A model generated the notes under the pieces. That model saw nothing but the letters and a program-made list of their open reading frames with translations, did no database searches and was not told the DNA's origin. Made by a program: the position numbers and the translations under genes. A stretch of 64,000 nt of DNA from Asparagopsis taxiformis (Eukaryota; Rhodophyta; Florideophyceae; Bonnemaisoniales; Bonnemaisoniaceae): positions 1 through 64,000 of the forward strand of contig JALQPE010000495.1 in assembly GCA_030407315.1 (NCBI GenBank), written 5' to 3'. The first letter of the stretch is position 1; every line of letters begins with the position of its first letter. Below, in pieces: positions 1,151-29,284 of this stretch.

Positions 1151-1289
1151 CCTAGAAACTCCCTTACTTACCTCTCCGAGAGGATGACTGAATCATCCAT
1201 CCTACACAAAATACAAACCATGATCCAAAAACCTTGCAATGAATAATCAAAGTCAGCAGTCCATATCTTCGCAAAACAAGTCTTGGTGC

Positions 1290-2110: not shown

Positions 2111-2132
2111 GAGGGTAGAGGATGGAACGAAG

Positions 2133-2170
2133 GTACGTGCGCGAATCTTGATCAAGATTCGCGCACGTAC
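2133..2170. repeat. Perfect 38-bp palindrome
   Basis: Bases 2133-2170 are an uninterrupted palindrome: each half starts GTACGTGCGC and the centre is TTGATCAA. It lies at the right border of the AC-rich repeats and 596 bp before the transposase start codon. It could be a boundary element or protein-binding site; its function is unknown. Confidence 0.9.
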
Positions 2171-2766
2171 AAAGCAAAGTCGGTCAAAGAAGATCAGTCG
2201 GTGATGAGGGCGGAGTGGAGCCTGCGGCGTCGACCGGACAGCTTTCTGCGTCCGCTTAAGTCTTGCTGTGCATACTCGAAATCATCGCCGGCAGTGAGAT
2301 TGAGTATGGCCCAAGCCATGGTCTCTGATTCCCCGAACAAAGAGATCCGGATCGAGAACAACGAATATAAACATATAATCATATATATGAGAATCCATTT
2401 GCTTTCCTTACATGATCTGTGGCATATCCGCTGTAAAGCACATTCAGATTCCACGAAGTTTGGAAATAAAAAAGTTTATTATTACAAATGAATTAATTGA
2501 AAATTCATCTCCCAGGGCAGTCGTTCGTCCTTCCATGCACACGTTGCCAGCACGCAATGTGATGTAACAGTTGGAAATGATTGAACTCTCGGTTAAATTC
2601 CACCGTTGGGATGTCAGCTGGAGTGAGCACAAAACTACTACCCAAAAACTACGAACACGTTACATTCCAAGTCTCGAAAGCACCACAAAAATAAAATTGG
2701 TCGCATCTGGACGGCACAGTCTCCCCTGTTCAGCTCGCAATCCTCCCTTTTGCGTCAAAACTCGAC
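2171..2766. other. Upstream region of the transposase gene; no gene seen
   Basis: This is 596 bp between the palindrome and the transposase ATG. Short open frames on both strands lack ATG starts or protein-like composition. The left terminus of the large element should lie here or a little further left, but I could not identify a convincing terminal inverted repeat or target duplication. Confidence 0.5.
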
Positions 2767-5700
2767 ATGGAATGCAAGTATGAAGGGTGCTTCTACTACT
2801 GCGTAGATGCTTATGCGCTCGCGCTGCATGAGCGAACGTGTCGCTACCGTTTCAACCCCTCTCCCCAACATTTCAACAACGCTCGTGTCCCTGCCGTCAC
2901 CCATGAGCCTGCTCGAAACGGCGACCATGATTCCCCGCAACCCAGCTCCCCAGACCCAGAATCTGGTCGTGCTTCCTCCAGCGACTCACCCTGTGACGCT
3001 TCACTGCCACCAACCTCAACCCCCTCCCGCGCAGACCTCCTCGTGCAATCCCTCGCCGCCAGTCTCACAACCCTCGAGTACAAGGCCGGCGCTGGCCGCG
3101 TGAGCGAAGTCATCACCATCCTACAAGACCCCGCATTCTCCCTAGAAAAGTTCAACAGCGCCGTTCGCACCGTAGAAGAATGTCGCCACGTTACCGCTTC
3201 CATGGTCGAAACACATTTCCGCACCGAAGGTTACAAGAGCCACATCATTCCAGACAAAACTGGTAAGTACTCGGCACAGCTGTACCTCCGCGACCCAGTC
3301 GACATGCTCCGCAGGCAGTTAGCACTGGCTAACGACCAAAATACTCTCTTCCACCCCTCCCCACAGACCGCCCCAGACGGCACCGCAATATTTTCTCATC
3401 CCCTACACACAGAATTCGCGAAAACGCTGCACCAGGTTACTAGACAGCGCGTGCAGCTCTCGGAAGATCCACAGGTCGTATGGGCAGAGGAAAATGATCC
3501 CACCGCTTCCTCCTTTGCCGGCCTCCTCCAAGTGTACTCCGACAAGAGCAGCACAAGCCTCAAGAGCTCCGCAATCGTCGCATACCCCATACACGTCACA
3601 CTGCTCAACTTCTCCGCCCCCCTCCGTCGCCACTGCATCCGTACCGGCCTCACCATCGTCGGGTATCTTCCGTACATTGTTAACCCTTCGTCCAACGCCT
3701 TGTTCGGTGATGAAATGCCGACAACCTCTAGTTCTGCTAGTCGCGCTCGCAAAATTGATATTCTTCATAAAGCACTCGAAAAAGTGTTTTCGTCCCTATC
3801 CACCGCGTTCTCTTCCGGGTTCCCCTGCACAGACTCCACTGCAACTGCCCGCCAATGCTTTCCCATCCTAGCCAATTATTGCTGCGACTTTCCAGAGGCC
3901 AAAGAGCTCTCATGCACTCGCAACAGCACTACCACCACACATCCCTGCCACCGCTGCTACATCCCCGCCACTCAACTTGAATCCAGCGCGCCACACCAGC
4001 CCCGCTCCCTCGATGATACACGCTCTGCACGCCAAGAGAGCGCTCAGGAGCATACAACTGCTCCGCTCGAAGCTCTCTCCCTCCTCGAACAACACTCTGT
4101 CCTCGAATCGACCGCTCTTTTACCCACCAACAGTCCCCTAGACCCCTACAACATTTTCTCCTTCGAGCCTCTGCACAATCTCCACCTCGGCATCTCAAAG
4201 CTCATCAAACAGTGCATTGTCCACCGCCTCAGCTCCCCAGACCTCACCACCACTGCCTCCCATTCCGGGACACCTCGCACCTTCAAGAAGGTGAAAAAAT
4301 CCATCCTCGCCGGCTCAAACAGCATTCTGTCCGCTATCGAACGCGACTACTACATCACCGGTCTTCATGTCGACTTCTCCAAGGGTGAGAAGGGCACCAA
4401 TTTGAACGGCCTCTTCACGGAGGACGGCATACGCGGCATGCTCGCAGCCAAAGACTATCACCATGTCGACATGGTGTTCCCTTTCATCGCAGCATTCATT
4501 GACACATGCTGTGACGAAGTAGATACAGCCCCCCTCACTTCCATCTGCACGCAATACTCTGACCTCGTCGCATGGGTCATGAAACGCGGTCGCATCAAGC
4601 ACTGGACTGCCGCCGAACTAGAAAGCCTCCAGAACTCCATTTCCTATTTCAAACAATCAATGCTCTCCACCCTCGGCCCATTCCACACCACAGGTCTCAA
4701 AACTTTCAAGTTCCATCTTCTAGACCATCTTCCCGGTGACTTGCAGAGATATGGCGCCCTGGAACACATTGATGCAGGCCCCTACGAACACTCGCATCTT
4801 CTGTTCAAACAGAGTTATAGGAAAACCTCTCGAAGGCGCTCCACAGCCATGGAAGAGACTATTCGCCACATGGAATTCTCCTTGGCCACTCCAACTGGTC
4901 ATACCCCATCGAACACATTGGGAAACGCACGCATGATATCGCCCACAGACGGTGCAGTACTCGTTCGCGACGGATTCACCGTTGCACTGCACGACTTTGC
5001 CTCCCTGCTGCCCGATGCAACCCTCCTCGTTGCAGATATCGACGGACAGCCCGATCCTGCCACTCTTTTGCCGCTGCACAACTCCTCGTTCCCGTCTGGC
5101 ACCATAACGCTATTCCAGCAACTCGGTGACACAGCTGCACAAGCGTTCCTCACCCTCGCTAGACTGCGCGCCACGGCAGAAGGCCCTCCAATACATGACA
5201 TGGACATTTCCGTCACCGTGGTAAAGTCCGCCTACGTCATGGGAGGGTACGTCCCAGATGCCGACGACTTTGACCCGCACAGTGGCATGCTTCGCCCCAC
5301 AAACGTGTCGAGGCACAAGCAGCAGCGCGTCTTTGCAACTTCATCGTTCGGCCCCGCAAAGAGATCGCAGTACTCCTTTGTCGTCATCTCCGGAACTGCC
5401 GATGACTACAGAACCATATGGGTAGGGCGCGTCCTGGCACTGGTACGCCTGCAGTCTCCAAACCTGTTTCAACCTGTAGAACTCGCTTTCGTTCAGTATA
5501 TGACCTGCTTTGCCCCAAAAACCGCTGTGGAAAAATCACTTGGGTGCATTTGTTTAAAGTGGTCCACATGGGACCCGGACAACGGATCCGTTGACAGCAA
5601 TGACACTGCATCCCACAGTGCAGGTGGTCCTTGGTTTGACCTCATTCCTGCATCTACTATATCTGGCACCGTGCACATCGTACGAAGTAACTTTCCAGTC

Positions 5701-5805
5701 AAGCCATTTACGAAACAAATGCACTGGTCGGACCACCGTTTCTATCTCAACCGCTTCTACACCAACACTGATTACCAATTCACAGATGATAATGAAGAAG
5801 AATAA
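2767..5805 (+). CDS. Plavaka-like (CACTA-related) DDE transposase
   Basis: A 1012-residue intact, intronless frame. Residues 3-25 form a C-x4-C-x12-H-x3-C finger, followed by a Pro/Ser linker to about 80. The core reads like Plavaka-family transposases: YSDKSS with D259, then AYPIHVTLLN and GYLPYI; FEPLHNLHLG around 467-475, where the family usually has D-x2-H; and PYEHSHLLFKQSYRK with E674 near HLLDHL. By family analogy D259, position 467 (here E) and E674 form the RNase-H-like active site. The last ~130 residues (FVVISG...IWVGRVLAL) resemble a small BAH- or Tudor-like fold. A polyadenylation word AATAAA overlaps the stop codon (5801-5806). The gene converges on the minus-strand gene 77 bp away. 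Family assignment is good; activity is inference. Confidence 0.82.
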   Translation: MECKYEGCFYYCVDAYALALHERTCRYRFNPSPQHFNNARVPAVTHEPARNGDHDSPQPSSPDPESGRASSSDSPCDASLPPTSTPSRADLLVQSLAASLTTLEYKAGAGRVSEVITILQDPAFSLEKFNSAVRTVEECRHVTASMVETHFRTEGYKSHIIPDKTGKYSAQLYLRDPVDMLRRQLALANDQNTLFHPSPQTAPDGTAIFSHPLHTEFAKTLHQVTRQRVQLSEDPQVVWAEENDPTASSFAGLLQVYSDKSSTSLKSSAIVAYPIHVTLLNFSAPLRRHCIRTGLTIVGYLPYIVNPSSNALFGDEMPTTSSSASRARKIDILHKALEKVFSSLSTAFSSGFPCTDSTATARQCFPILANYCCDFPEAKELSCTRNSTTTTHPCHRCYIPATQLESSAPHQPRSLDDTRSARQESAQEHTTAPLEALSLLEQHSVLESTALLPTNSPLDPYNIFSFEPLHNLHLGISKLIKQCIVHRLSSPDLTTTASHSGTPRTFKKVKKSILAGSNSILSAIERDYYITGLHVDFSKGEKGTNLNGLFTEDGIRGMLAAKDYHHVDMVFPFIAAFIDTCCDEVDTAPLTSICTQYSDLVAWVMKRGRIKHWTAAELESLQNSISYFKQSMLSTLGPFHTTGLKTFKFHLLDHLPGDLQRYGALEHIDAGPYEHSHLLFKQSYRKTSRRRSTAMEETIRHMEFSLATPTGHTPSNTLGNARMISPTDGAVLVRDGFTVALHDFASLLPDATLLVADIDGQPDPATLLPLHNSSFPSGTITLFQQLGDTAAQAFLTLARLRATAEGPPIHDMDISVTVVKSAYVMGGYVPDADDFDPHSGMLRPTNVSRHKQQRVFATSSFGPAKRSQYSFVVISGTADDYRTIWVGRVLALVRLQSPNLFQPVELAFVQYMTCFAPKTAVEKSLGCICLKWSTWDPDNGSVDSNDTASHSAGGPWFDLIPASTISGTVHIVRSNFPVKPFTKQMHWSDHRFYLNRFYTNTDYQFTDDNEEE

Positions 5806-5882
5806 ATCTAAATCGCAGCACTCTATTGATAATGTACTACATGATAAACCTTCTAGTCAACGTCACATTTACTGCACTAATT

Positions 5883-8168
5883 TCAACCATCCTCCATTAC
5901 GCCAAAACCGTTATCAGCAGTGGCTGCATGGCGCCGCTCCATGCCCCCATACTGTGGGGCATTGATTTCGACATTCAGGTTTGCAGTCAGGTGTCCAGCA
6001 TATGGGTCAACGACGAAAAGTTCTGCGCCAATTAGTCCTTGCGCAATCACACAATCCATTACAGCACCGAGGTTTGACGTAATATGCGATTGAATCCAAT
6101 CCTCGGACACTAGAACAAGTGATGAGCAGCGGTTTACATCATCAACGACATGAACAATTCCAGACCCCTCTCCGCTTTGCCACACTTCAACAGCCTCTCT
6201 CGTCACAGTACGGCTTGCAAACACATGCCGTGACTGTGCACTAGTCCGCTGTTCGCTCTCGACAACGTCCGTTTCTTCCCTTGCTTGCGAGCCTTGGAGA
6301 CAAGACATGCAGTACACCACCATACCAACTAATTGCTGAAAAGCTACCCCCACATATTGACTGTACCGCCTTGTAAACTCCTTCTGCCGTGCACCTCCTT
6401 TCCCCTTCGGTTCATCCAAACACTCCACAGTAGTCACTAGCCAAGCATCCAGGCGCGCCAGCGTTAGTATGCTCGTCTCTATGTCCATTACTTGTTCTGG
6501 TCGTATCGAATAACCCCTGAAGATGTCCAGCACATTCACAGCTACTCGGTTGTTAAACCATGCATCACCATTCACTTCCATTTCGAAGCTGTCAGGAACC
6601 AAGCCTTTGCTGTATCGCAGCTCTGAGAACGGTGCCGTTCGCCACCTCCCCATATCCAAATCACCGTTACTTTCCCGTTTCAAAAGCTTCTCAGACGCTT
6701 CGCGCTTTTGTTCCTCTCGCTCGTCCATCTCAGCTCGCGTCGTCAGCATCGTGCATCTAGACATTAATTTCGTGTACCCCAGCGAACCGAACAATCTGTC
6801 CCTCGCATTACGCTTCCGTGCACTCATCACGTCGGACAGTTTCTGCGTCACCTTCACTTTCAATTCCTTGCTCCCCGCCACAGCCTCTTGACAGCACACA
6901 CGCTGCTCCTCATCGGAAAACACATCACACCACGGACTTTGACGCAGTACGTGTCGCACCAAGTCATTCAGCAGATCACTCTCGTCCCTGTACGAAGGTG
7001 TATACCACTGCAGATTCTTGATGATATAGCCCGGAGGGGTAGCAATATATCCTACACCGTTTTCGCTCCAAAGTGCCCCTTCTACCGGCTCTACCTCGAT
7101 GGTACGTCCAGTCCAACGTCTCTGCGTTTGTTCCGCTATAGGGTCCAGCTCCATAGTCTCGTTCTTGCACCACTTTGTCAGGTTTTCCTCAACCGCCCTA
7201 AGAACTCCAAGGTATTTCACAGGAATGGCTTTCTGTATTTTCGACTTACCGCCACCGTGATCACTGATTCTACCTGTTCTCGCAATTGCAGTAAGGCTGG
7301 CATTTTCCGCCTGCAGAGTCTTCACCTTAGCCTCCAACGCAACAATCTCCGTGGTGAGCGCCTTGTTTGCTATGTCCTGGCTAAACACTTTTTTTTCCAG
7401 CTCCGCGATCTTCTTCTTCTGCGCATTGATGCGACTCGCCATTAAATCGATGGATTCCGGCGGATGCAACCTCTCTGCCCTCACCGTCCCCCCATCTCCC
7501 ACGCTATCGGGAATATGATGTCCTCCATCGCCAATAGCCTGACGTCGCGGGGGCGTTACGCGCATATTTGGCACCAATGACACTCTGTTGTGACGAGGCC
7601 CGCACTCCGGCTGCTCTCTCCCCTCAGTACCACCTGACCGCCGATGATAGTTGGCATCCTGTGAACGTTGCTCAGAAACAACATCCCTTGCCGCTATCCT
7701 CGGGTCCCTGACTGCATTACCTGCTGGGGCTGATGTACTCGGCATAGTTGGCGCAGTGGGGGTCACAGCCTCCAGTGTGTCGGAAGCCCCCGGCTGGGAC
7801 TCCGTCTGCAGCACCTCCGCATCTGCCAACCCGGGAGGAACTACCTTTGCCATAGCACTCTGCCGCAATTCCAACATGTTTTGAGCCACTATCATGTCAT
7901 CATCATGATGTTCACTGTCCCTGCGAGCACGCTTGCCTCGGTCAAGCCCCATCTCTCTCCGCGCCGTTCCTCCTTCCTCACTTTCTCGCTGCGGATCCCC
8001 AGTTCTGCGCCGGTCCGTCTTGCGACTACCGGACCGCGGTTCAATGCTGCCGGTAGGCCCAGACCGCTTCTTCGCACGGGATTGTCGGGCACTCGATACA
8101 GCAGCTGCTGACCGGGTTTTCTGGAGGCCCGGAGGCTTTGGAGCTTTCTTCGCAATACGCGGCGGCAT
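5883..8168 (-). CDS. Coiled-coil protein of the large element, function unknown
   Basis: A 761-residue intact intronless frame with an ATG at 8166-8168. Residues 1-90 are highly basic and disordered (Arg/Lys/Ser, nuclear-localisation-like runs); 100-240 are Pro/Ser-rich. Residues about 243-297 form a clear leucine-type coiled coil (KKKIAELEKKV and onward). The C-terminal ~450 residues look globular with mixed helix and strand, but I recognise no family. It lies tail-to-tail with the transposase. A stretch upstream of it resembles the upstream region of the ParB-dioxygenase gene, which argues that both belong to one element. A DNA-binding or dimerising accessory factor for transposition is possible, but that is inference. 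Confidence 0.75.
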   Translation of the reverse strand: MPPRIAKKAPKPPGLQKTRSAAAVSSARQSRAKKRSGPTGSIEPRSGSRKTDRRRTGDPQRESEEGGTARREMGLDRGKRARRDSEHHDDDMIVAQNMLELRQSAMAKVVPPGLADAEVLQTESQPGASDTLEAVTPTAPTMPSTSAPAGNAVRDPRIAARDVVSEQRSQDANYHRRSGGTEGREQPECGPRHNRVSLVPNMRVTPPRRQAIGDGGHHIPDSVGDGGTVRAERLHPPESIDLMASRINAQKKKIAELEKKVFSQDIANKALTTEIVALEAKVKTLQAENASLTAIARTGRISDHGGGKSKIQKAIPVKYLGVLRAVEENLTKWCKNETMELDPIAEQTQRRWTGRTIEVEPVEGALWSENGVGYIATPPGYIIKNLQWYTPSYRDESDLLNDLVRHVLRQSPWCDVFSDEEQRVCCQEAVAGSKELKVKVTQKLSDVMSARKRNARDRLFGSLGYTKLMSRCTMLTTRAEMDEREEQKREASEKLLKRESNGDLDMGRWRTAPFSELRYSKGLVPDSFEMEVNGDAWFNNRVAVNVLDIFRGYSIRPEQVMDIETSILTLARLDAWLVTTVECLDEPKGKGGARQKEFTRRYSQYVGVAFQQLVGMVVYCMSCLQGSQAREETDVVESEQRTSAQSRHVFASRTVTREAVEVWQSGEGSGIVHVVDDVNRCSSLVLVSEDWIQSHITSNLGAVMDCVIAQGLIGAELFVVDPYAGHLTANLNVEINAPQYGGMERRHAATADNGFGVMEDG

Positions 8169-8404
8169 AATGAAGCTTTCCCGGAAGCGATGGAACGATT
8201 GAGTTGCACGAGATACAAAAAAGATTGCTGTATAGTGTCGGTAACCACAACGGTCTGCGATGAACGTTCAGGTCAGGTCAAGTACCGGATAATACGCCAA
8301 CAGCCCAGATTGTATACGGTAGGCAGTCATCAACAGTATTTAATGAGGTACAATTACAGCTGTCGAGCTAGGCCGCGAGCACCCCTATGTCCGGAAGACG
8401 TCCT
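8169..8404 (-). promoter_or_regulatory. Upstream region of coiled-coil gene, related to 15062-15165
   Basis: Read outward, 8340-8404 (ATTACAGCTGTCGAGCTAGG, then GCGAGCACCCCT, then TCCGG) matches the reverse complement of 15062-15125, upstream of the ParB-dioxygenase gene. A weaker match continues to about 8320 (GGCAGT). In both places the match abuts the satellite. A shared promoter or regulatory module is the simplest reading. Confidence 0.5.
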
Positions 8405-8957
8405 GATTTGAATTAAAATTTGGGCTATTCTCAAAAACATGCACATGTGAACATGTTTTTGAGATGGGGGTGTGCCGTACGGCACAATCGACCGCCCAAA
8501 TCGATGTTTTTTGCAATATTTTTTTGTGCCCGAAATTTTAGAATTTCTGGGCTGGCCAGCAATGCAATCGAGCTGGACATCCACCGGACGTCCATTTCAG
8601 GTTGGTCGTGAGAGAGCGGGGCGGGACCATGATGGAACAAGGACCAAGACCTGTCCCTGGCGTATTGAGCCTGAAATTGACCCTTCGTCAGACGCCATTT
8701 AGCCTTACAGTTGGTGCTTACAGAAGCCAGTGATGACCCCGCTCGGGGCGGCGGTCGGTTCCTGGGGCCGTTGTGGCCAAATTAGACACCCTGATTTGAA
8801 TTAAAATTTGGGCTATTCTCAAAAACATGCACATGTGAACATGTTTTTGAAATGGGGGTGTGCCGTACGGCACAATCGGCCGCCCAAATCAAGGTTTTTT
8901 ACAATATTTTTGCTGCCCGAAATTCTACAATTTCTGGGCTGGCCAGTAATGCATTAG
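8405..8957 (+). repeat. Hairpin satellite, one full and one partial monomer
   Basis: Two copies of the element's satellite with 388 bp between equivalent points. Each contains the perfect palindrome TGTGCCGTACGGCACA (8471-8486, 8859-8874). Each also has a hairpin with 12-bp arms CTCAAAAACATG / CATGTTTTTGAG around CACATGTG. The second copy breaks off near 8957. Orientation here is opposite to the copies right of 13900. Open frames within it recur in every monomer and are not genes. Confidence 0.9.
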
Positions 8958-9420
8958 CTATGTGCTCTAAACCGATTCTAACAAGCAGAAAGAATCCTCT
9001 CCTTCATGACGATGCTCTCGAATTGAGTGCAATGCAACGGACTCCCTCCAGGAGAACGACAAAGCATCGTCTTTTGCAAGACATTTTCGTACGAAAAATA
9101 ATCGAAACACATATTTGACTTTAACCTAACAGCTATCGCGAGCACCGTACTCAGCTAAATTTCCTCTGTAATTTCCTTCCTCCAACCAATCAATAGCCGC
9201 TTGGTCACAGGCTTAAAAGCCTTCCACTATTTGTCCTATCCATCGAAGAGGGTTCGATCCAGGCCTTGATGGGTGTGGAACCCGAGAACTTGAAAATGGA
9301 ACATATTGCGACAGAGATGAGATGTCATTCTCTTTCGTTTACTTTTTTCTAACAAGATTCTAAACGTCTACGCAGCGGAACGAACCCAATGTCGTCCGTC
9401 CGTTTTCAGCCCGGTGAGAT
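8958..9420. other. Spacer without recognisable gene
   Basis: About 460 bp between a broken satellite monomer and the glycine-codon minisatellite. I see no sustained frame and no repeat homologous to other parts of the window. Confidence 0.4.
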
Positions 9421-9423
9421 GTT

Positions 9424-9770
9424 TTTGCCATTAACGGAGGTGGAGGCGGCTATGGAGGAAGCCTGCGGTTCGGGTATTCTTTCCATTAACGGAGGTGGAG
9501 GTGGCGGCTTTGGAGGAAGCCTGGAGAACATGTGAGATGTCAGTACCCATGGATCACAAGAAAAACATGTAGAGGTCCAGTTTGGATATTGTTGCCATTA
9601 ACGGAGGCGGAGGAGGCGGCTACGGTGGAAGCCTGGAGAGCATGTGAGATGTCAGTACCCATGGATCACATGAAGAACATGTTGAGGTGCGGTTCGGATA
9701 TTCTTTCCATTAACGGAGGCGGAGGAGGCGGCTACGGTGGAAGCCTGGAGAAGAATAGAATAGTCCTATA
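9424..9770. repeat. 112-bp minisatellite with GGA/GGC core
   Basis: The word CCATTAACGGAGGYGGAGG recurs at 9428, 9483, 9595 and 9707; the last three are exactly 112 bp apart. In one plus-strand frame the core would read INGGGGGYGGSL, as in glycine-rich proteins, but stop codons (TGA after AACATG) interrupt every unit. I treat it as a minisatellite, possibly derived from a glycine-rich coding exon. Confidence 0.75.
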
Positions 9771-10055
9771 CCCATGGATCACAAGTAGACGTAGTTGGGC
9801 TCCTTTTCGAAGCCCATTCGTCTCTTGAATAAATTTAGCACCCAAATCATATACGATTGCCGAGTTGACACCCCGTATGTCTCGTTGGTAGAAATAGCAG
9901 GGGTTCCACCACTCAGCTGGCGGGAAGTAGTTACTGATTATATGAGATATGGCTTAGCTCCCGCCAAAACCGATAGCTCTGGGCTCAGGTTCTCCAAATG
10001 TGGTTATACGAATGTGTTCTGACAATGGTAGAAGACGAATATCTGCATCCTGCTT

Positions 10056-10245
10056 TGAATTAAAATTTGGGCTATTCTCAAAAACATGCACATGTGAACA
10101 TGTTTTTGAGATGGGGGTGTGCCGTACGGCACAATCGACCGCCGAAATCGATGTTTTTTGCAATATTTTTTCTGCCCGAAATTGTAGAATTTCTGGGCTG
10201 GCCAGCAATGCATCTGAGTCGGACATCCCCACGTCCAGTGGCCGT
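10056..10245 (+). repeat. Hairpin satellite, single partial monomer
   Basis: About 190 bp of the same satellite, in the same orientation as 8405-8957, with the palindrome at 10118-10133. It ends just before the leader of the methyltransferase-SET gene and faces inverted copies that begin at about 13970 beyond that gene. Confidence 0.88.
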
Positions 10246-10563
10246 CCGGATGTCGCTCACCTGGTAAGCGTGAGGCACCTGTGTCAACCTATGTGACTGG
10301 CGGCCTTGCAGTACAACACTCAAAGGCAGGGAATCACAATCTTTTTAAAATTTTTTCTCTACCACGTATCCGTCACAACTTATTACCTACACCGGTTACG
10401 GGTTTCAAGACCTTTCCAGTGCTGTGTACCCGTATACTCTGTTCCGTTCGATATCAACCAGTGTTCCTCACGAAAGAGTGCAAACGTCACGAGATACGTC
10501 GTCAAATTTGACTGTCTCGCCGAGCGGTCGCCATCCTGTACCGAATTTTCCACTCATTCCATT

Positions 10564-13761: not shown

Positions 13762-13969
13762 GGTCACGAAAGATGTTTTCATTTCGACTACAAATAAAGC
13801 TACGTTCCAGAGTTGAAGTATATCATATAATGCAGAATGTCCAGCCACCATTAGTCCAGGGTGAAACCTATTCGGCAGTACTCGCCTGTCAAAAACCAAT
13901 CGTTCACACTCTAGGTGCACTTCGTCCGAGCAGTGAACCTGACTGCTTGGTTGCTGTTATGCGTGCAGA

Positions 13970-15061
13970 TGCAAAATACAAGACCAAGTTGAAATGGACG
14001 CCCGGTGGATGTCCAGCTCAGTTGCATTGCTGTCCAGCCCAGAAATTCTACAATTCAGGGCAGAAAAAATATTGCAAAAAACATCGATTTCAGCGGGTCG
14101 ATTGTGCCGTACGGCACACCCCCATCTCAAAAACATGTTCACATGTGCATGTTTTTGAGAATAGCCCAAATTTTAATTCAAATCAGGGTGTCTAATTTGG
14201 CCACAACGGCCCCAGGAACCGACCGCCGCCCCGAGTGGGGTTGTCACTGGCTTCTGTAAGCACTAACTGTAAGGCTAAATGGCGTCTGACAAAGGGTCAA
14301 TTTCAGGCTCAATACGCCAGGGACAGGTCTTGGTCCTTGTTCCATCATGGTCCCACCCCACTCTCTCACGACCAACCTGAAATGCACGTCCGGTGGATGT
14401 CCAGCTCGATTGCACTGCTGGCCAGCCCGGAAATTCTAAAATTTCGGGCACAAAAAAATTGTAAAAAATCAACGATTTCAGCGGGTCGTTTGTGCCGTAC
14501 GGCACACCCCCATTTCAAAAACATGTTCACATGTGCATGTTTTTGAGAATAGCCCAAATTTTAATTCAAATCAGGGTGTCTAATTTGGCCACAACGGCCC
14601 CAGGAACCGGCCGCCGCCCCGAGCGGGGTCATCACTGGCTTCTGTAAGCACTAACTGTGAGGCTAAATGGCGCCGGAAGATGGGTCGATTGCAGGCTTCA
14701 AGCCTAAGTTATGCTAGGGAGAAATCTTCTTCCGTGTTTTACTCCCTCAACAGAAACACTACTCACCCATCACGTTACTCATATTCCGTGCACTTTATAT
14801 TAGTAGTGAACCCGCCTGCTTAGTTGCTGCAATGCGTGGATGTAGGCAGCACACGACCAACCTGAAATGGACGTCCGGTGGATGTCCATCTCAGATGCAC
14901 TGCTGGCCAGCCCAGAAATTCTAAAATTTCGGGCACAAAAAATCTTGCAAAAATCAACGATTTGGGCGGGTCGATTGTGCCGTACGGCACACCCCCATCT
15001 CAAAAACATGTTCACATGTGCATGTTTTTGAGAATAGCCCAAATTTTAACTCAAATCAGGG
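13970..15061 (-). repeat. Hairpin satellite array, three monomers, reversed
   Basis: Three monomers in the reverse orientation relative to those left of the methyltransferase gene, with palindromes at 14103-14118, 14491-14506 and 14976-14991 (spacings 388 and 485). The longer spacing comes from an inserted block ending GTAGGCAGCACACGACCAAC. Internal words include GGACGTCCGGTGGATGTCC. Identity between monomers is high by eye. Confidence 0.92.
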
Positions 15062-15408
15062 TGTTCCCCGGATAAAGGGGTGCTCGCAGCCGCCCCAAAA
15101 GCCGCCTAGCTTGACAGCTGTAATTTTAACACATTACACATCAAGGACACTGCCTGCTTCACGCCACCTCGTCAGGTTTCGAGAGCCCGACTCGGGCCCG
15201 TTCTGAACGGACACTCACATCTCGATTGCCTGTCTTGCATTCCAGCGGTCACGATAGGTGTGTACCTAACAAAATTTCGGTTGTATTGTGTTATTATTTC
15301 CAGCGATTGGCGTTCACGACCATTCTTCAACTTAACGTGAAACATACCATCCACATCACTCGAATACGTCAACGTCAACCATCTCTTTTCCTTTCCAACT
15401 CAACAACC
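15062..15408 (+). promoter_or_regulatory. Leader of ParB-dioxygenase gene
   Basis: The region between the satellite and the ATG. Bases 15062-15125 match, in reverse complement, the upstream region of the coiled-coil gene (8340-8404). The start codon sits in a strong eukaryotic context (ACCATGG). Confidence 0.5.
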
Positions 15409-18400
15409 ATGGCGGATACGCATTTCAGCAGTTTGTTTTCAACGGTTTGCGGCGATCAAGTGAGCGCGTCAGCGGAGTCGCGCGGACTCAAGCGCGGCGT
15501 CGATGTCGACTTGTTTGCGGACGTGGACGGTGCGGCTGTGCATATTGGGACGGCTTCGGTGAGCACTGCTGGTGGCGATGTTGGCCTTCCGCGCACGCTG
15601 CACAACCACAAGCTGCCGGAAACCGACGAGGCCGACTATATCGTCGTGCGCAACATTGCGACTAAGGACAAGTTCAAGGACCTCCCGTTCCCGTACATGT
15701 TTGATGGCGCCGAGGGACCGCCGGAGACGATGGGTGGAGCATACGCCGCGGCGTTTTACCCTTGGGATACTCGGATGATGCGCCCCGCTGCGGAGGATGG
15801 CTCTAGCGACATTCGTACCCCTGCTGCAGCGTCAAACTTCAACGCAGCGACGAACCAGGCCAGCTCGGGACGGATGCCCAGTACCGGTCCAGCAGGCGAA
15901 ATCACTGGTTCGGGGGGTACGAAGCATCCAGCACGCTCCGTCCCGGTTTCGGGAGGCACGAAGCGCCCTGCTCGCTCTGCCAGAGCCTCCAGTGGAGGCA
16001 CGAAGCACCCTGCTCGCTCCAACGTCACCGAAGCTACTACGCAGGACGTAACCGAGGTGGACGACGAACCGGAGGTGGCGGAAAGCATTCGTGAGCAGCA
16101 GGGGACGCAAATTATGGTGCCCAAGTTTGTGACGTCGGATTACGTCGGAGAAGGAGCGACTGTGTTGGTGAGGCAGCTAGTGGAACCGGCCGTGACCCTT
16201 CGCGATGTCAAAGAAGACCACGTGGAGGACCTGCGCAACAATATGTTGGCGGTGGGGTATGTGAGCTCTTCGCGTATCACTGTGACGGTGCTGAGGTCGC
16301 AGAACACGCATTTGTCCGCCGACACGCGTCTGTTCCAGAATGGCAAATTCCATGCCAATGCGAACGTGACCGTGATCGACGGACTGCATCGTCTCAATGC
16401 TATGCATAGCATTGCGGATGACTTCACGCGCCTCACCCGTATGCACAGAACCAAGCTGCCACAGGAGGCAAACCGCTTGCGCTGGGTTACTCAGCCTCTG
16501 GATGTGTACTACCTTCGCCGCAAGGACGACAGTGATCTCCAGCCTCATGAGATCATCCACAAGAGTGCAGAGTCGAACCATACGACTGGGACGCAACTGA
16601 CGGAGCGCTCCCTGGTTCGAATCTTGTCGTCCATCCAGCAGTTCATCCGTACGATTGCTGTTGCAAACAACGTGGAAAACGCTGGCGACTTGCGTGAGTC
16701 TGATGTCATCCGAACATTGTTCGAGGCGCAGTTCATGGGGATGATGAATTCGACGAACACGGCTCGGCGGTGGACGCGTTTGGCTATAGCAACGCTGAAG
16801 CATCCTGTTCTCGACGACGTGTTGCGTGAGCTGAACAATTCCGAGCGCCGCAACGAGATTGGGATAACGCACCTGGACCACAAGATAGTGCGCGAGTTGC
16901 TGGAAGAAAACTTTGTCTTCGTCTTGCGTGGTCTTTCGGAGTACTTGAACCCTGCTCATGGCGGACGTCCGGATGGACGCTTTGACGTGAACGACTTTTA
17001 TACATACGTCCGTCGCGTGACTGCAATAGCAAATTCTCTGTACGCTGCGTTTGGGCGCCCAAAGAGTATTATGCGCAAGTCATTTCTGAGCACAGAGATG
17101 GCAATTGGGTCGGTTAAGCAGCCGAAGGAGTTGCAATGGCATCTCACCAATGCCATTGCAATGTATAGAGGGGACGACCGGAGCAGTGAGGTTCGAATGC
17201 GACGGAGAACCACGCGTTTACAGGATTTGGAAACGAACTTGAAAGAGTTTTTCAATCCGACATTGAAGAAGAAGACTAAGGCTCGACGCAAACGCCGCCC
17301 TTCTGCTGCCAATGTGAGACTCACTCACAAGAAGCAGCGGAATGTCGAACATGAGCCTGCTTCGCATGGCATCCGCCGCCGTTCACAGCGACTTCGCTCG
17401 ACGGGGAGCACACGCCTCGAGGAAGAAGAGCCGGTTGTGGTACAACAATCCGCCGGGGAAGAAGAGCAGGCCGTTGTTGATAAACCCACCGATCAACAAC
17501 AAGCCACTGCTTCCGGTGATGAGGTTGACGAAGACTCCGCCCGTTCCCCCGATTCTGCCGTTGAGATTGTCCCCCAAGATAACCAACGTGCTGGTGCGAC
17601 TCCCTCCAACCAAGAATCTGTCCATACCGCTTCGGACGAGGAAGACAAACAGGGTGCAGACGAGGGCCAAGTCGAAAGCAAGGGGGTCCGCGAAGTGACA
17701 ATTACATTCACTGTTCCGGAAGGAGTGGAAGTCGATGAAGACGGTTACATCGTTCGTGACTCTCCTTCTGAAGACGACCTCCTCTTCGACGACCGTATGC
17801 CGTCTCTTCCTGACGATTTCGAAGACCGAGCCGAAGGGCATCATCTGGCGCAGCGTCCCGCGGATGTCATCGCATCGGTGAGGGTTGGCTGTCTGCCCCC
17901 GATTGAGCTCAGGTTGTTATTGGAGAGTGTGGAAATCGATGAGGAGGGCAGAGAGGTGAGGTATTTGAAGCAAGTGGCGATGGACCCTGTGTTTGAGGGG
18001 CTGCATATTCCGGAAGAACATCGGGCTCGTGTGCTATTCGAAATCGATCACGTCTATCCGATGTTCTTCGCAGCGTGGAAGATGGCTGCCAAGGCGATGT
18101 GTGAGCCTACATCGACGTTTCTACCCTCGAGGCTGGACTTCGCCCAGGTTGCGCGAATGTCTACAAGCTGGAAGGATTCGTATGAGGCCGGCACTGGTAT
18201 GGCGTACTTCCACAATTGCCGAACGGAAATCAACGAGCGAGGGTATACGGTGATGCACAATTTCGCGGATGTAAGCTACCTCGATGCGTCGGACAAGTTC
18301 CCATTTGACTTGGGTCTCATGGAAGAAATTCCTAACCAGGAATTGTTTCGGTACTTTTTGGGAACGTGGGAGGGGGAGCAGGTGCACAAGGACCCTGGGA

Positions 18401-19341
18401 ACCGGCAGCTGTGGAGTCCCATTGTCAATACGGGGGACGATGAAACAGATGAGAAGAACCGGAATGAGGGGAGGGCTCGCTTCACGTCTACGCGCCACTG
18501 CCTGGTTGACTATGCCGAGAACGATGAGACGCATATCGACCGGTTCAAGTTTGTGACGCGGCGAGCCCTGCTGGATGTGTGGTTGGGAATCCTTGTCCGG
18601 CTGATAGGGCTGGAGGAGTGCGGTTTACCGGGAGAAAAACTTGTCATGCCGGCATCTGGGGGACGGTTTTTGATAACGGGAAAGGGGTGTCCTCGGCAGG
18701 TCCCACACAATGATTTCCCTGTTCCTCCTCGCGACCGCAAAGATCAACTTCCGGGTTACTTTGTTATTGCCAACGGAGATGACCCATTCCCTATCTGGGT
18801 GTGTCCAGGGTCCCACAAGTACGTCTTTTCCAAAGCGCTGGAATTAGATATGTACGCCAAGACGATGAAGCTGAAGAAGGTAATCGTTCCGCCACGTTCA
18901 GTCTTCATCGGTCACGGCCATGTACAACATGCCGGGGCAGGGCATGTCGACAGAGTTGTGTCACACACGACAACGAGGTATCACACGTATTTCAGGAATG
19001 CGTCGTATCCGATTCCCGACAATGTTTCGTTTGGTTTCATCAGGCGGTTGGGATTCGAAGAAGAAGTCATCGCCAATGCTCCGCGCCGGTCTGCAAGGCA
19101 AAGTCAACCGGCACCTGTCAATGTTCGCCACAAGACAGTTGTTCCCATCCCGGTCAAGAAAGATGGTAGGCCGAAGACAGGGCAGCTCCGAATGATGCGG
19201 ATGAAGACGACAGAACCTCGCAAGGATGTAATGCACACACCGAGTGTGGCCCCGGTAGTGCCTCTTCTGCCGGGACAACCTGGATATCTAGTTCACTATC
19301 ATAGTGAGGACGAAGAGGAAGAACAGTTTTCCGACGGCTAG
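15409..19341 (+). CDS. ParB-like domain fused to putative 2OG-Fe(II) dioxygenase
   Basis: A 1310-residue intact intronless frame starting at the ATG at 15409. Residues 1-240 are low-complexity, with three GGTKHPARS-like repeats near 165-210. Residues ~260-345 resemble a ParB/sulfiredoxin-type domain with the motif VIDGLHRL at 322-329. A helical region follows to ~600, then a basic run (KKKTKARRKRR, about 619) and a long acidic stretch. The C-terminal ~300 residues carry a double-stranded beta-helix signature: PHND with H1100 and D1102 as metal ligands, then IGHGHVQHAGAGH with H1174 as the likely third ligand, and R1190 as a candidate 2-oxoglutarate anchor. These enzymes oxidise methyl groups on bases or proteins, among other substrates. 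The distal part is divergent, so the dioxygenase call is moderate. The neighbouring methyltransferase suggests a writer/eraser pair; that is inference. Confidence 0.75.
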   Translation: MADTHFSSLFSTVCGDQVSASAESRGLKRGVDVDLFADVDGAAVHIGTASVSTAGGDVGLPRTLHNHKLPETDEADYIVVRNIATKDKFKDLPFPYMFDGAEGPPETMGGAYAAAFYPWDTRMMRPAAEDGSSDIRTPAAASNFNAATNQASSGRMPSTGPAGEITGSGGTKHPARSVPVSGGTKRPARSARASSGGTKHPARSNVTEATTQDVTEVDDEPEVAESIREQQGTQIMVPKFVTSDYVGEGATVLVRQLVEPAVTLRDVKEDHVEDLRNNMLAVGYVSSSRITVTVLRSQNTHLSADTRLFQNGKFHANANVTVIDGLHRLNAMHSIADDFTRLTRMHRTKLPQEANRLRWVTQPLDVYYLRRKDDSDLQPHEIIHKSAESNHTTGTQLTERSLVRILSSIQQFIRTIAVANNVENAGDLRESDVIRTLFEAQFMGMMNSTNTARRWTRLAIATLKHPVLDDVLRELNNSERRNEIGITHLDHKIVRELLEENFVFVLRGLSEYLNPAHGGRPDGRFDVNDFYTYVRRVTAIANSLYAAFGRPKSIMRKSFLSTEMAIGSVKQPKELQWHLTNAIAMYRGDDRSSEVRMRRRTTRLQDLETNLKEFFNPTLKKKTKARRKRRPSAANVRLTHKKQRNVEHEPASHGIRRRSQRLRSTGSTRLEEEEPVVVQQSAGEEEQAVVDKPTDQQQATASGDEVDEDSARSPDSAVEIVPQDNQRAGATPSNQESVHTASDEEDKQGADEGQVESKGVREVTITFTVPEGVEVDEDGYIVRDSPSEDDLLFDDRMPSLPDDFEDRAEGHHLAQRPADVIASVRVGCLPPIELRLLLESVEIDEEGREVRYLKQVAMDPVFEGLHIPEEHRARVLFEIDHVYPMFFAAWKMAAKAMCEPTSTFLPSRLDFAQVARMSTSWKDSYEAGTGMAYFHNCRTEINERGYTVMHNFADVSYLDASDKFPFDLGLMEEIPNQELFRYFLGTWEGEQVHKDPGNRQLWSPIVNTGDDETDEKNRNEGRARFTSTRHCLVDYAENDETHIDRFKFVTRRALLDVWLGILVRLIGLEECGLPGEKLVMPASGGRFLITGKGCPRQVPHNDFPVPPRDRKDQLPGYFVIANGDDPFPIWVCPGSHKYVFSKALELDMYAKTMKLKKVIVPPRSVFIGHGHVQHAGAGHVDRVVSHTTTRYHTYFRNASYPIPDNVSFGFIRRLGFEEEVIANAPRRSARQSQPAPVNVRHKTVVPIPVKKDGRPKTGQLRMMRMKTTEPRKDVMHTPSVAPVVPLLPGQPGYLVHYHSEDEEEEQFSDG

Positions 19342-19609
19342 ATATCTTAACAACAACTACTTTAGCAAACAATTATCGAGAATATAATCATCTCCTTTAT
19401 CACTTTCAATCTATGAACCTACTATAATGCACTTCCGTTCCATGCTTTCAAACTAGATTGTCCATTCCCTAGTGGGTTGGAGCATGATTCCAGGACGATT
19501 CCCTCACATCTCTAGACTCGATGGTCTATGCTAGAAATAGCAGAACAATTGGGTTTATACGTGCTTCATCGCCAACTTGCTTCTGGTAATGGCTGGACGT
19601 GCACGATAC
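19342..19609. other. 3' flank of ParB-dioxygenase gene
   Basis: AT-rich non-coding sequence between the stop codon and the next satellite array. No convincing gene or AATAAA is seen. Confidence 0.4.
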
Positions 19610-21525
19610 ACGATCACCTGAAATGGACGTCCGGTGGATGTCCAACTCAGATGCATTCCTGGCCGGCCCAGAAATTCTACAATTTCGGGCACAAAAAAAT
19701 ATTGCAAAAAACATCGATTTGGGCGGTCGATTGTGCCGTACGGCACACCCCCATCTCAAAAACATGTTCACATGTGCATGTTTTTGAGAATAGCCCAAAT
19801 TTTAATTCAAATCAGGGTGTCTAATTTGGCCACAACGGCCCCAGGCACCGGAACCGCCGCCCCGAGCGGGGTCATCACTGGCTTCTGTAAGCACTAACTG
19901 TAAGGCTAAATGGCGCCTAACGATGGGTCGATTCCAGGCTTCAAGCCTAAGTTATGCTAGGGTGACATCGTTTCCCCTGTTCCATCATGGTCCTGCCTTA
20001 CTCCTCCACGACAAACACTACTCACCCATCACGTTACTCGTATTCCGTGCACTTTGTATGAGTAGTGAACTCGCCTGCTTAGTTGCTGCAATGCGTGGAT
20101 GTAGGCAGCACACGACCAACCTGAAATGGACGTCCGGTGGATGTCCATCTCAGATGCACTGCTGGCCAGCCCAGAAATTCTACAATTTCGGGCACAAAAA
20201 ATCTTGCAAAAATCAACGATTTGGGCGGGTCGATTGTGCCGTACGGCACACCCCCATCTCAAAAACATGTTCACATGTGCATGTTTTTGAGAATAGCCCA
20301 AATTTTAATTCAAATCAGGGTGTCTAATTTGGCCACAACGGCCCCAGGCACCGGCCACCGGCCCCGATCGGGGCTATCACTGGCTTCTGTAAGCACCAAC
20401 TGTAAGGCTAAATGGCGTCTGACGAAGGGTCAATTTCAGGCTCAATACGCCAGGGACAGGTCTTGGTCCTTGTTCCATCATGGTCCCGCCCCGCTCTCTC
20501 ACGACCAACCTGAAATGGACGTCCGGTGGATGTCCAGCTCGATTGCATTGCTGGCCAGCCCAGAAATTCTAAAATTTCGGGCACAGAAAAATATTGCAAA
20601 AAACATCGATTTGGGCGGTCGATTGTGCCGTACGGCACACCCCCATCTCAAAAACATGTTCACATGTGCATGTTTTTGAGAATAGCCCAAATTTTAATTC
20701 AAATCAGGGTGTCTAATTTGGCCACAACGGCCCCAGGAACCGACCGCCGCCCCGAGCGGGGTCATCACTGGCTTCTGTAAGCACTAACTGTGAGGCTAAA
20801 TGGCGCCGAAAGATGGGTCGATTCCAGGCTTCAAGCCTAAGTTATGCTAGGTACGCATCTTCTTCCGTGTTTCATAATGGTCCCGCCTTACTCCCTCAAC
20901 ACAAACACTACTCACCTATCACGTTACTCATATTCCGTGTACTTTGTATTAGTAGTGAACCCGCTGGCTTAGTTTCTGCAATGCGTGGATGTAGGCAGCA
21001 CACGACCAACCTGAAATGGACGTCCGGTGGATGTCCAGCTCAGATGCACTGCTGGCCAGCCCAGAAATTCTAAAATTTCGGGCACAAAAAATCTTGCAAA
21101 AATCAACGATTTGGGCGGTCGATTGTGCCGTACGGCACACCCCCATCTCAAAAACATGTTCACATGTGCATGTTTTTGAGAATAGCCCAAATTTTAATTC
21201 AAATCAGGGTGTCTAATTTGGCCACAACGGCCCCAGGAACCGACCGCCGGCCCCGATCGGGGGCTATCACTGGCGTCTGTAAGCACCAACTGTAAGCCGG
21301 AGCCGGCTGCCGCCCCGATCGGGGCTATCACTGGCTTCTATTAGCACCAACTGTAAGCCAAAATCGCGTCTCACGAAGGGTCGATTTCAGGCTCAACACG
21401 TCAGGGAAAGGTCTTGGTCCTTGTTTCATCATGGTCCCGCCCCACCCTCTCGCGACCAACCTGAAATGGACGTCCGGTGGATGTCCAGCTCGATTGCATT
21501 GCTGGCCAGCCCAGAAATTCTAAAA
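19610..21525 (-). repeat. Hairpin satellite array, four monomers plus fragment
   Basis: Monomers with palindromes at 19732-19747, 20235-20250, 20624-20639 and 21124-21139. Spacings alternate 503, 389 and 500 bp, so short (388) and long (500) forms make a higher-order repeat. The fifth monomer stops at about 21525 before reaching its palindrome. The same orientation as 13970-15061. A GAGCGGGG / CCCCGATCGGGG stem lies in each unit. Confidence 0.93.
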
Positions 21526-21837
21526 TTTCCGAAAAATCAATTTGGTGGCCCAGCATCTCCTGTGCCGAAAATTCCCGCACTCAGTTCTGATATACGTCTA
21601 GACGTGTTTCCCACTTGTACGCATCAGGGAAGGCGTCACGGAAGGTTGACACTACGCTACTTGTGTACCGCGTCGTCTGAAATAGCGAGTAGTGTTTGTT
21701 GTATAGTTGTGGAGTATGCGTCTAGTGGTTTGTAAAGCTTGCAGAACGGGATAGGGATGTGGGTGGCCCTATTTTATGAATACATGAGTACCAATATTCA
21801 GGGTTGACAAAGCGGAAAGGCATAGGCTCATACATGT
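21526..21837. other. Right flank of the large element; no gene seen
   Basis: About 310 bp between the truncated satellite and a purine-rich block. A TAGTG word at 21722-21726 would suit the end of a CACTA-like element, but no matching CACTA was found near 2171-2766, so the right terminus remains undefined. Confidence 0.35.
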
Positions 21838-22830
21838 TTGAGATTGCATAGTAGAGAAAATATTTTCATCGAAATTTACATGGAGCTGATGGAGGTTTTA
21901 AGGATGAGGTATGAGAGGAAGAAAATTCTTCTGTGGTATGAGGATGTGTTCTGTGGGGGGATGGAATCTTGGGATGGTACAGGGGGAGGTGGAAATGTAC
22001 GGAGTGCGGGTTTAGAATGGATTGTGATTCGGAGAGGAGTGCCGACAAGCATATTATGGGGATTGGGGAGACGCTGCGGGGTGTTGGGGTAGTGAGGGCG
22101 GAGGAGGTGTTTAGGTGGGACCGTAGGAGGGTGCGGTTGAAGGCGCCGAGAGGAGGGGTTTTTAGGAAAGTGAGGAGAAAGAAGGGGAGGGGGTGGCGTC
22201 TGTTCTGGCTGTGGTGAGTGGGGATGTGATGGAGAAGAAGGGGGTTATTGTATTTGGGGAGGGAGGGGAGTGGGAGGAAGGGTGCGAAGTGGGGGGTTGA
22301 TATGTGTTTCAGAGCGGGGAGGTTTCTGGGGATACGGCGGGGGAGCCACCCCGCAGTGCGGGAGCGTGGGCCGGTGGTGGTGGTGTATACGGTATCGAAG
22401 ATGCGGATGGCGTGGGGGCATGGAGCAGCTGAGGGAGGGAGGGGTGGAGCAGGTCGGGTACGGGATGGGGAGTGAGAGGTTTTGGAAGAGTAAGCTGCAG
22501 GGGAAGTTTGTGTAGAGGGCGAAGGAGAGGGGTTGAGGGTAGAGGAGAGAGGGTACTGAAGAACAATACGTTTCAAAGGTGATGGGGGAGAGCATGGTCG
22601 AGGAGATAGGGGGTGTTTTGCCCTATTCTGAGGTAGTATGAGGACTGGTTATACGAAATCTGTACGGTAGAGCAGAAAAGTAGGTATGGAATGGAGGTGT
22701 GCACCGTGGAAGCGGGGATAGGTATCTGAAAATGCGTGCTAGAGTGGTATTGGGGGTGTTTGAGGTACAGTACGGGGGAGGTGAGCACCAACAGGAAGGG
22801 GGTGTGAGCGAGAGGATGAAAAAATTAAAG
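21838..22830. repeat. Purine-rich strand-asymmetric region
   Basis: About 1 kb where the plus strand is dominated by G and A and very poor in C, in long GGAGGGG-type runs. Frames open on both strands are Gly/Arg-rich on plus and Pro/Ser/His-rich on minus (for example 21866-22576), as expected from composition alone. A short frame at 21969-22217 has a WKCTECG start that might be a zinc-finger relic, but I would not call it a gene. Confidence 0.55.
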
Positions 22831-29283: not shown

Positions 29284-29284
29284 T

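What the first reader, a model, noticed from the sequence alone, without database searches (positions are those of the whole stretch)
2171..21540. Candidate giant mobile element carrying a methyltransferase-SET and a ParB-dioxygenase gene
Four long intronless intact genes occur together: a Plavaka-like transposase, a coiled-coil protein, a DPPY methyltransferase-SET fusion and a ParB-2OG-dioxygenase fusion. A hairpin satellite unique to this stretch separates them. The 5' flanks of the second and fourth genes share sequence, which ties them into one unit. KDZ transposons of fungi are known to travel with TET/JBP oxygenases; a Plavaka-type element with its own base-methylation writer, SET domain and possible eraser would be a different and, as far as I know, undescribed combination.
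Basis: partly seen in the sequence, partly recalled or inferred. Interest (0 to 1): 0.92.

Follow-up and report, generated by a model that had tools for sequence, protein, structure and literature searches.

The report
Giant transposon carrying DNA-methylation genes
A 23-kilobase jumping gene unit, present in roughly a thousand copies in one eukaryote genome, carries its own predicted DNA-and-protein methylating enzyme and moves as a single block, which suggests a mobile element that may write its own epigenetic marks.

Summary
The finding is real, with corrected borders. The window holds one copy of a 23.0-23.4 kb DNA transposon at window 1-23176; about 118 bp of its left end lie beyond the contig start. 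It has 34-bp imperfect inverted termini (CGTCTGTG...CACAGACG), subterminal arrays and 2-bp target duplications (matching in 3 of 9 copies read at both ends). One copy with transposase, methyltransferase and ParB/oxygenase-like genes has an empty, probably allelic, counterpart (99.9% identical flanks, TA duplicated); a second, with all four genes, has empty versions of its target repeat. Genome counts are 1030 (transposase), 987 (methyltransferase-SET) and 920 (oxygenase core). Plavaka, methyltransferase (DPPY, predicted N6-adenine) and SET domains pass Pfam cut-offs; 'ParB' and '2OG dioxygenase' rest on motifs only. Methyltransferase-SET and the fourth gene show purifying selection between two subfamilies, in which the methyltransferase segment lies in opposite orientations. 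A 16-bp palindrome recurs ten times, in this window only inside the element. No C5-DNA-methyltransferase was detected, so a 5mC 'eraser' role is doubtful. Known relatives are TET-bearing Plavaka elements of fungi and giant Plavaka repeats of Amoebidium; this cargo was not found in the papers searched. The host is not identified.

The parts
1..23176 (+). Plavaka-class transposon copy, about 23.3 kb; about 118 bp of its left end lie beyond the contig start
   Evidence: 33 of 33 scored genome matches of window:19345-29282 (6010 candidates at first look) stop at 23176-23178; left terminus in C110 lies 12196 bp before the MTase 28-mer; six other copies measure 23037-23385 bp
1..429 (+). left subterminal array of 43-bp units (10 copies), rich in TACTAG
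   Evidence: TACTAG 14 in the left 700 bp (of the C436 copy) and 5 in the right 700 bp (window) vs 0.05 per kb inside
551..725 (+). left subterminal 24-bp repeats
2767..5805 (+). Plavaka transposase, 1012 aa, one open frame
   Evidence: PF18759 E 1.6e-24; 28-mer counted 1030 times in genome
5883..8168 (-). coiled-coil protein, 761 aa, unknown fold
   Evidence: at least 59 near-identical copies
8371..8954 (-). hairpin satellite units, inverted relative to those right of the methyltransferase
   Evidence: I1, I2, I14, D7; stem-loops 8430 and 8818
9468..9752 (+). 112-bp tandem repeat, 2.5 copies
10046..10228 (-). hairpin satellite unit left of the methyltransferase gene
   Evidence: stem-loop 10077
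10564..13761 (+). methyltransferase-SET fusion, 1065 aa: N6_N4_Mtase about 12064-12885 (DPPY residue 507, DPFSG 746), SET about 13288-13737
   Evidence: PF01555 56.8 bits, PF00856 29.5 bits; motif positions; 28-mer counted 987 times
13866..15091 (+). hairpin satellite units, three copies
   Evidence: D1/D2; stem-loops 14126, 14514, 14999
15409..19341 (+). large protein with ParB-like motif (about 16132-16410) and 2OG-oxygenase-like HxD...H...R motif (about 18643-19011); open frame from 15130
   Evidence: motif positions; no Pfam match; phrog_1033 ParB-like at E 0.2; 28-mer counted 920 times
19495..21529 (+). hairpin satellite units, four copies
   Evidence: stem-loops 19755, 20258, 20647, 21147
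23009..23176 (+). right subterminal repeats and right terminus, ending CCGAGAACACAGACG
   Evidence: (D17); 32 of the first 34 bases match the left end (C436 copy) inverted

Best explanation
A large autonomous cut-and-paste DNA transposon of the Plavaka (CACTA-like) group. Shown: it moves as one unit of about 23.4 kb with inverted termini and a 2-bp target duplication, and the transposase, methyltransferase-SET and ParB/oxygenase-like genes travel inside it, as does the coiled-coil gene in the copies where it was located. Inferred: the transposase, perhaps with the coiled-coil protein, binds the TACTAG-rich subterminal arrays at both ends. The methyltransferase-SET protein writes a predicted N6-methyladenine mark on DNA and a lysine mark on chromatin, so that copies stay accessible or are told apart from host DNA. 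The fourth protein binds element DNA, possibly at the palindromes of the hairpin satellite, and its oxygenase-like domain modifies or removes a methyl mark there. Confidence in the mobile unit is about 0.97, in the two writer domains being enzymes about 0.75, and in the self-marking role about 0.35.
For: Termini, duplication and length. Empty counterpart at C789 with 1286 + 1430 bp of flank at 99.9% identity and exactly 2 bp overlap, opposite the 23,385-bp C436 copy; empty repeats for C662. Near-equal gene counts 1030:987:920, controls 0. Pfam matches above cut-offs. Purifying selection between subfamilies: methyltransferase-SET 12 of 25 substitutions synonymous (dN/dS 0.33, p 0.006); fourth gene 29.5 of 60 (0.33; p 1e-5 with 30 of 60).
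Against: No activity was tested. ParB and oxygenase folds have no profile support and both structure models failed (mean pLDDT 35 and 32). Only 3 of 9 copies read at both ends show matching 2-bp flanks. The coiled-coil gene shows no purifying selection in this comparison (2 synonymous of 10) and its frame is shifted in C254. Some copies seem to lack the methyltransferase (6 of 23). The selection test uses one copy per subfamily and cannot separate selection for the element from selection for the host.
Confidence: 0.7

Rival explanations
1. The methyltransferase-SET and fourth genes silence rather than protect: they mark element copies or competing elements as repressed chromatin and so limit copy number or rivals.
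For: In bdelloid rotifers a captured bacterial amino-methyltransferase with SETDB1 partners is reported to silence transposons (PMC8885841, abstract and passages). The DNA-writer plus histone-writer pairing is the same kind of partnership.
Against: About a thousand copies, many near-identical, argue that the element has not been effectively silenced; selection for self-repression is harder to maintain (inference).
Confidence: 0.2
2. The cargo is passive: genes captured once that hitchhike with a successful transposase and do nothing for it.
For: Copies with shortened oxygenase frames are common among the 150 rows; 6 of 23 places lack the methyltransferase word; left-type termini outnumber gene copies (1407 vs 987).
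Against: dN/dS 0.33 for both large cargo genes and 40 of 40 scored methyltransferase-SET copies with an intact frame at 100% (rounded) identity (a capped list of the best).
Confidence: 0.2
3. A degraded Polinton-like or other integrated DNA virus rather than a transposon.
For: Long, gene-dense, with uninterrupted frames and a prokaryote-type methyltransferase; adintovirus-like integrations carry Dam genes (PMC11244446, section 7).
Against: No capsid, packaging or polymerase domain in the four genes; Plavaka transposase, CACTA-like subterminal arrays and 2-bp duplications.
Confidence: 0.03
4. Assembly artefact joining unrelated repeats.
For: Six of nine copies lack matching target duplications, and contigs often end inside copies.
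Against: Same gene order and spacing on many contigs, two copies of exactly 23,385 bp, and an empty counterpart site.
Confidence: 0.02

Closest known systems
TET/JBP-bearing Plavaka and KDZ transposons of fungi (Kojima 2025, PMC12730594)
   Same: Plavaka transposase with a predicted DNA-modifying oxygenase as cargo; TSDs of 2 (PlavakaA) or 2-3 bp (PlavakaB); proposed counter-silencing.
   Different: Published Plavaka termini are TGT..ACA or CATCA..TGATG; here CGTCTGTG..CACAGACG. Here HxD, not the HxE of PE-type TET, and no detected TET similarity. A DNA methyltransferase-SET fusion and a coiled-coil gene are added. The paper discusses 6mA oxidation by a fungal TET, but the word ParB is absent and the methyltransferase passages found describe no such cargo.
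Plavaka giant repeats of Amoebidium (PMC11244446, section 7)
   Different: There many of the cargo genes are tyrosine recombinases and the host has 5mC. Here the cargo is a methyltransferase-SET and a ParB/oxygenase-like gene, with termini and empty site resolved.
Retrotransposons with captured DNMTs in dinoflagellates and charophytes (PMC5890265, abstract and outline seen)
   Same: Mobile element that encodes its own DNA methyltransferase.
   Different: C5-cytosine enzymes in retrotransposons; here an amino-methyltransferase of prokaryotic type fused to SET in a DNA transposon.
Bdelloid N4CMT (PMC8885841, abstract and passages)
   Same: Captured bacterial amino-methyltransferase with a chromatin partner, in a genome without canonical C5-DNMT.
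   Different: Host gene that silences transposons, SPPY motif and chromodomain; here transposon-borne, DPPY motif and SET domain.
Phage ParB-fold / N6_N4 methyltransferase fusions (PMC12704722, passages)
   Same: Pairing of a ParB-like domain with an N6_N4 methyltransferase on mobile DNA.
   Different: There one polypeptide; here two genes, and the ParB-like assignment is weak.
SET-bearing HarbingerS and MuDR transposons of Phytophthora (named in the introduction of PMC12730594)
   Same: DNA transposon with a SET gene.
   Different: Other superfamilies; no DNA methyltransferase fusion mentioned there.

Membership tests
Plavaka superfamily | PF18759 transposase domain | tested here: met
   87.2 bits against cut-off 26.3
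Plavaka superfamily | target duplication of 2 (or 3) bp | tested here: met
   TA with empty counterpart, TC with empty repeats, AA in C1975; but only 3 of 9 copies read at both ends match
PlavakaA or PlavakaB lineage (Kojima 2025) | terminal bases TGT..ACA (A) or CATCA..TGATG (B) | tested here: not met
   termini are CGTCTGTG..CACAGACG; not filed in either lineage, only in the superfamily by its transposase
TET-bearing Plavaka (PE type) | TET/JBP dioxygenase with HxE motif | tested here: not met
   HND (HxD) at residue 1161 of the window frame; no Pfam, PDB-sequence or PHROG match to the oxygenase part
KDZ transposons | KDZ transposase | tested here: not met
   only Plavaka matched
Beta-class amino DNA methyltransferase, N6A type | PF01555 domain, DPPY before the F-x-G motif | tested here: met
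   DPPY 507, DPFSG 746; that DPPY is the N6A and SPPY the usual N4C motif is from PMC8885841; class names recalled
Beta-class amino DNA methyltransferase, N6A type | catalytic activity and target | not testable with these tools
   no assay
SET lysine methyltransferase | PF00856 above cut-off with catalytic tyrosine region | tested here: met
   29.5 bits against 22.4; FINDPR and ELYVHYG present, the usual FINH being FIND (recalled)
ParB/Srx fold | ParBc profile match | tested here: inconclusive
   no Pfam match at E 10; phrog_1033 ParB-like E 0.2, fourth of four weak rows
2OG-Fe(II) oxygenase fold | profile or fold match plus HxD...H...R | tested here: inconclusive
   motif only; no profile match, model pLDDT 32
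Plavaka giant repeats of Amoebidium | tyrosine-recombinase cargo | tested here: not met
   no such domain among Pfam matches of the four proteins

The most novel reading that the evidence does not exclude
The element runs its own cis-acting epigenetic identity system. A ParB-like protein is loaded on ten copies of a perfect 16-bp palindrome (TGTGCCGTACGGCACA; bacterial parS sites are palindromes of about this length, recalled) inside the hairpin satellite, spreads over the element and carries its oxygenase domain to self DNA, while the methyltransferase-SET protein couples a 6mA mark to a histone mark on the same copies. This would be a writer, eraser and self-recognition kit of phage-like parts in a eukaryotic transposon, in a genome without a detected C5-DNMT.
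Probability: 0.1. Interest if true: 0.92.

Novelty: new variant of a known kind. Interest (0 to 1): 0.74.

Why it matters
Transposons that carry DNA-modifying oxygenases or C5-methyltransferases are known. A DNA transposon with an amino-methyltransferase fused to a histone-methyltransferase domain, amplified to roughly a thousand copies, makes a direct test possible: does a mobile element write its own DNA and chromatin marks, and is that what lets it escape control? Because many copies are near-identical and an empty counterpart exists in the same genome, native-DNA sequencing of existing DNA could show at once whether element copies carry 6mA.

Tried and rejected
The 43-bp and 24-bp repeats at 29715-29999, inverted relative to the left end, first suggested a 30-kb element. 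Rejected: the window copy ends at 23176, and 29283-30122 is the end of a diverged relative.

An ongoing flip-flop of the methyltransferase gene was considered because 29 of 36 pairs are inverted relative to the transposase. Not claimed: orientation mostly follows sequence lineage (5 of 5 same-orientation copies share one haplotype; 7 of 8 inverted copies carry other, related haplotypes, C236 being intermediate; 1 of 8, in C192, has the same-orientation haplotype).

An open frame on the minus strand at 21866-22648 was considered as a fifth gene; it is low-complexity with no Pfam match and was dropped.

A direct phage origin of the fourth gene was sought: no phage match for the whole region; its parts gave no plasmid match for the oxygenase core and only matches at E 2-9 elsewhere. 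The genome-contig scan for the methyltransferase confirmed no relative among 23 pattern matches. Homologous-protein search found one 98% identical methyltransferase-SET protein, none for the fourth protein, and nine Plavaka relatives at 29-98%. Structure prediction without relatives failed, so no fold search was run.
Full report
What is there. The window is contig C495 of a 141.5-Mb assembly in 3156 contigs. Pfam gives a Plavaka transposase for the first and a DNA methylase (PF01555) plus SET (PF00856) for the third, all above the curated cut-offs; the second has only weak coiled-coil matches and the fourth none. The likely starts are ATG 10564 (a 98% identical public protein of 1065 aa begins there) and ATG 15409.

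Borders. The same gene order and spacing recur on many contigs. When window 19345-29282 was searched against the genome, 33 of 33 scored matches (6010 candidates at first look) stopped at window 23176-23178, at 100% rounded identity. Reading ends of other copies gave the left terminus CGTCTGTGTTTTCGGAAGTGGA and the right terminus TCCATTTCCGAGAACACAGACG; the first 34 bases of the two ends match at 32 positions when inverted. The window copy lacks about 118 bp at its left end, because the contig begins inside the left array. Six complete copies measured 23037, 23248, 23267, 23287, 23385 and 23385 bp. No terminus was found at the expected place in C312 and C2369 (both ends) nor at the right end of C2167, C503, C1565, C2203, C1013 and C749, and six requested stretches lay beyond a contig end; these copies were not used for the duplication count.

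It moves as a unit. Nine copies were read at both ends; 3 of 9 (C436 TA, C662 TC, C1975 AA) have identical 2-bp flanks and 6 do not (chance of 3 or more of 9 is 0.015). I take the six as recombined or chimeric copies, which was not tested. Joined flanks of all nine were searched in the genome (40 rows scored of 2016 candidates, so empty sites of the other seven may have been missed). One row, C789, runs straight across the C436 junction, and 39 rows run straight across the C662 junction, evidently copies of a repeat into which that copy inserted. In C789 the 1286-bp left flank and 1430-bp right flank of the C436 copy align at 99.9% and overlap by exactly 2 bp; an allele is the simplest reading, a duplicated region is not excluded. 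The C436 copy has transposase, methyltransferase and fourth gene inside its 23,385 bp; its coiled-coil gene was not among the 59 rows scored. The C662 copy, also 23,385 bp, has all four.

Abundance. Word counts over the whole genome, up to 2 mismatches, control 0: transposase 1030, methyltransferase 987, oxygenase-like core 920. At 23 kb each this would be about 16% of the assembly, an upper estimate because many copies are broken. The left-type terminus occurs 1407 times at up to 1 mismatch, control 0; the window's right end differs from it by 2 bases and is not counted, so the surplus suggests cargo-less relatives. One relative's end lies in the window at 29283-30122. The transposase loci read (8 of the 123 scored matches, the best-scoring) are 98-100% identical to the window's, several with broken frames; the 40 methyltransferase copies scored are 100% identical in protein after rounding.

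Two forms. In contig C254 the stretch matching window about 9590-14187 is inverted. Among the 100 listed transposase places (of 1030), 36 had a methyltransferase word 4-15 kb downstream: 29 inverted, 7 in the window's orientation; 58 had neither methyltransferase nor oxygenase word in range, many because of contig ends. Of 23 with an oxygenase word 9-22 kb downstream, 23 had it in the transposase's orientation, and 6 of these 23 had no methyltransferase word. Counted from the methyltransferase side, 38 of 70 places had an oxygenase word within 9.5 kb, 15 in the same and 23 in the opposite orientation. The inverted segment is bounded by the oppositely oriented satellite blocks at 8396-10228 and 13866-15091, so inversion by recombination between them is the simple explanation. 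Orientation follows sequence lineage in 12 of 13 copies compared over 450 bp, so I describe two subfamilies rather than a switch.

Selection. Between the window copy and C254: transposase 4 synonymous and 1 non-synonymous change; coiled-coil 2 and 8; methyltransferase-SET 12 and 13 (dN/dS 0.33); fourth gene 29.5 and 30.5 (0.33). The excess of synonymous changes is significant for methyltransferase-SET (p 0.006) and the fourth gene (p 1e-5, counts rounded to 30 and 30), marginal for the transposase (0.015) and absent for the coiled-coil gene (0.74). The cargo is therefore maintained, on the evidence of one copy per subfamily.

What the cargo does. The methyltransferase has DPPY before DPFSG, the beta-class order (recalled); DPPY is the motif of bacterial N6-adenine enzymes (PMC8885841). 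Its best PDB-sequence matches are named adenine-specific (DpnA; CcrM further down), its best NCBIfam row is an adenine-specific family far below that family's cut-off (34.5 against 292 bits), and 53 phage records match part of it at E 0.01 or better, at under 60% identity. The SET domain keeps ELYVHYG. The fourth protein has a ParB-like stretch (VIDGLHRL) and an HND...PGSH...QHAGAGH...R stretch like a 2OG oxygenase, but no profile supports either and both structure models failed. The oxygenase is HxD, unlike the HxE of the PE-type TET proteins described in Plavaka (PMC12730594, section 3.4). No C5-DNMT domain was found in the genome (0 candidates; 10 of 14 control genomes matched, the ten named being prokaryotes; introns could hide it). 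A 5mC eraser therefore has no demonstrated substrate here, while the element brings its own candidate writer.

The satellite. Ten units (seven of repeat family D1, three of D7) lie between 8396 and 21187; each carries a stem-loop with arms of about 12 bases and the palindrome TGTGCCGTACGGCACA, exact in 10 of 10, and neither occurs elsewhere in the window. Two of four folded pieces, those with the stem-loop, are far more stable than shuffles (z -4.8 and -3.7); the two without are not (z -0.1 and 1.1). A search for the 12-base core in C254 found 7, of which 6 have the full 16 bases. It looks like a possible protein-binding site; that the fourth protein binds it is a guess.

Terminal arrays. TACTAG occurs 14 times in the left 700 bp (read in the C436 copy) and 5 times in the right 700 bp (window) against 0.05 per kb inside, as expected of subterminal binding sites in CACTA-like elements (recalled).

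Known relatives. 'Plavaka' is held in 11 papers of the library, 10 listed; only two papers hold both 'Plavaka' and 'methyltransferase'. TET-bearing Plavaka families are described in PMC12730594 (introduction, sections 3.2 and 3.4 and the first part of the discussion read), and giant Plavaka-flanked repeats in Amoebidium in PMC11244446 (section 7 and passages read). Five other searches with SET, ParB, adenine, dioxygenase or 4mC terms (listings seen) showed no Plavaka element with a DNA methyltransferase; a search with the Pfam name was uninformative (12 of 5770 listed, none with the name). The original Plavaka paper (Iyer and others 2014, recalled) and a 2016 review of adenine methylation are not held, so prior mention there cannot be excluded.

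Host. Not identified. The absence of a detected C5-DNMT and a flank of C254 that reads like a Ty3-type polyprotein (recalled likeness, no profile run) do not decide it.

Noticed in passing
window 41544-44265 and 47841-50562: A 2722-bp inverted repeat, 100% complementary, with 3575 bp between the arms and a von Willebrand A-domain ORF (46166-46891, -) inside; either a long-TIR element or an assembly palindrome.
   Followed up: partly
window 29283-30122: Inverted, 84-92% similar relative of the element's left end, ending in the same terminus; a related, diverged or cargo-less family.
   Followed up: partly
window 50974-52821 and 54048-55217: A long hAT transposase frame (BED finger plus dimerisation domain) and a Copia-type reverse transcriptase frame.
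   Followed up: no
window 2200-22000: GATC is depleted inside the element (observed/expected 0.54 against 0.91 at 30200-64000) and absent from both 700-bp ends; could bear on a methylation target or be chance.
   Followed up: no
contig C254 (L077-L079): The right-half genes of the two subfamilies differ at dS 0.016-0.031 while transposase and coiled-coil gene differ at 0.004-0.005: the left half seems homogenised by recombination or conversion.
   Followed up: no
window 26310-28208: A 632-aa minus-strand frame rich in Ser/Pro/Ala with no Pfam match, outside the element.
   Followed up: no
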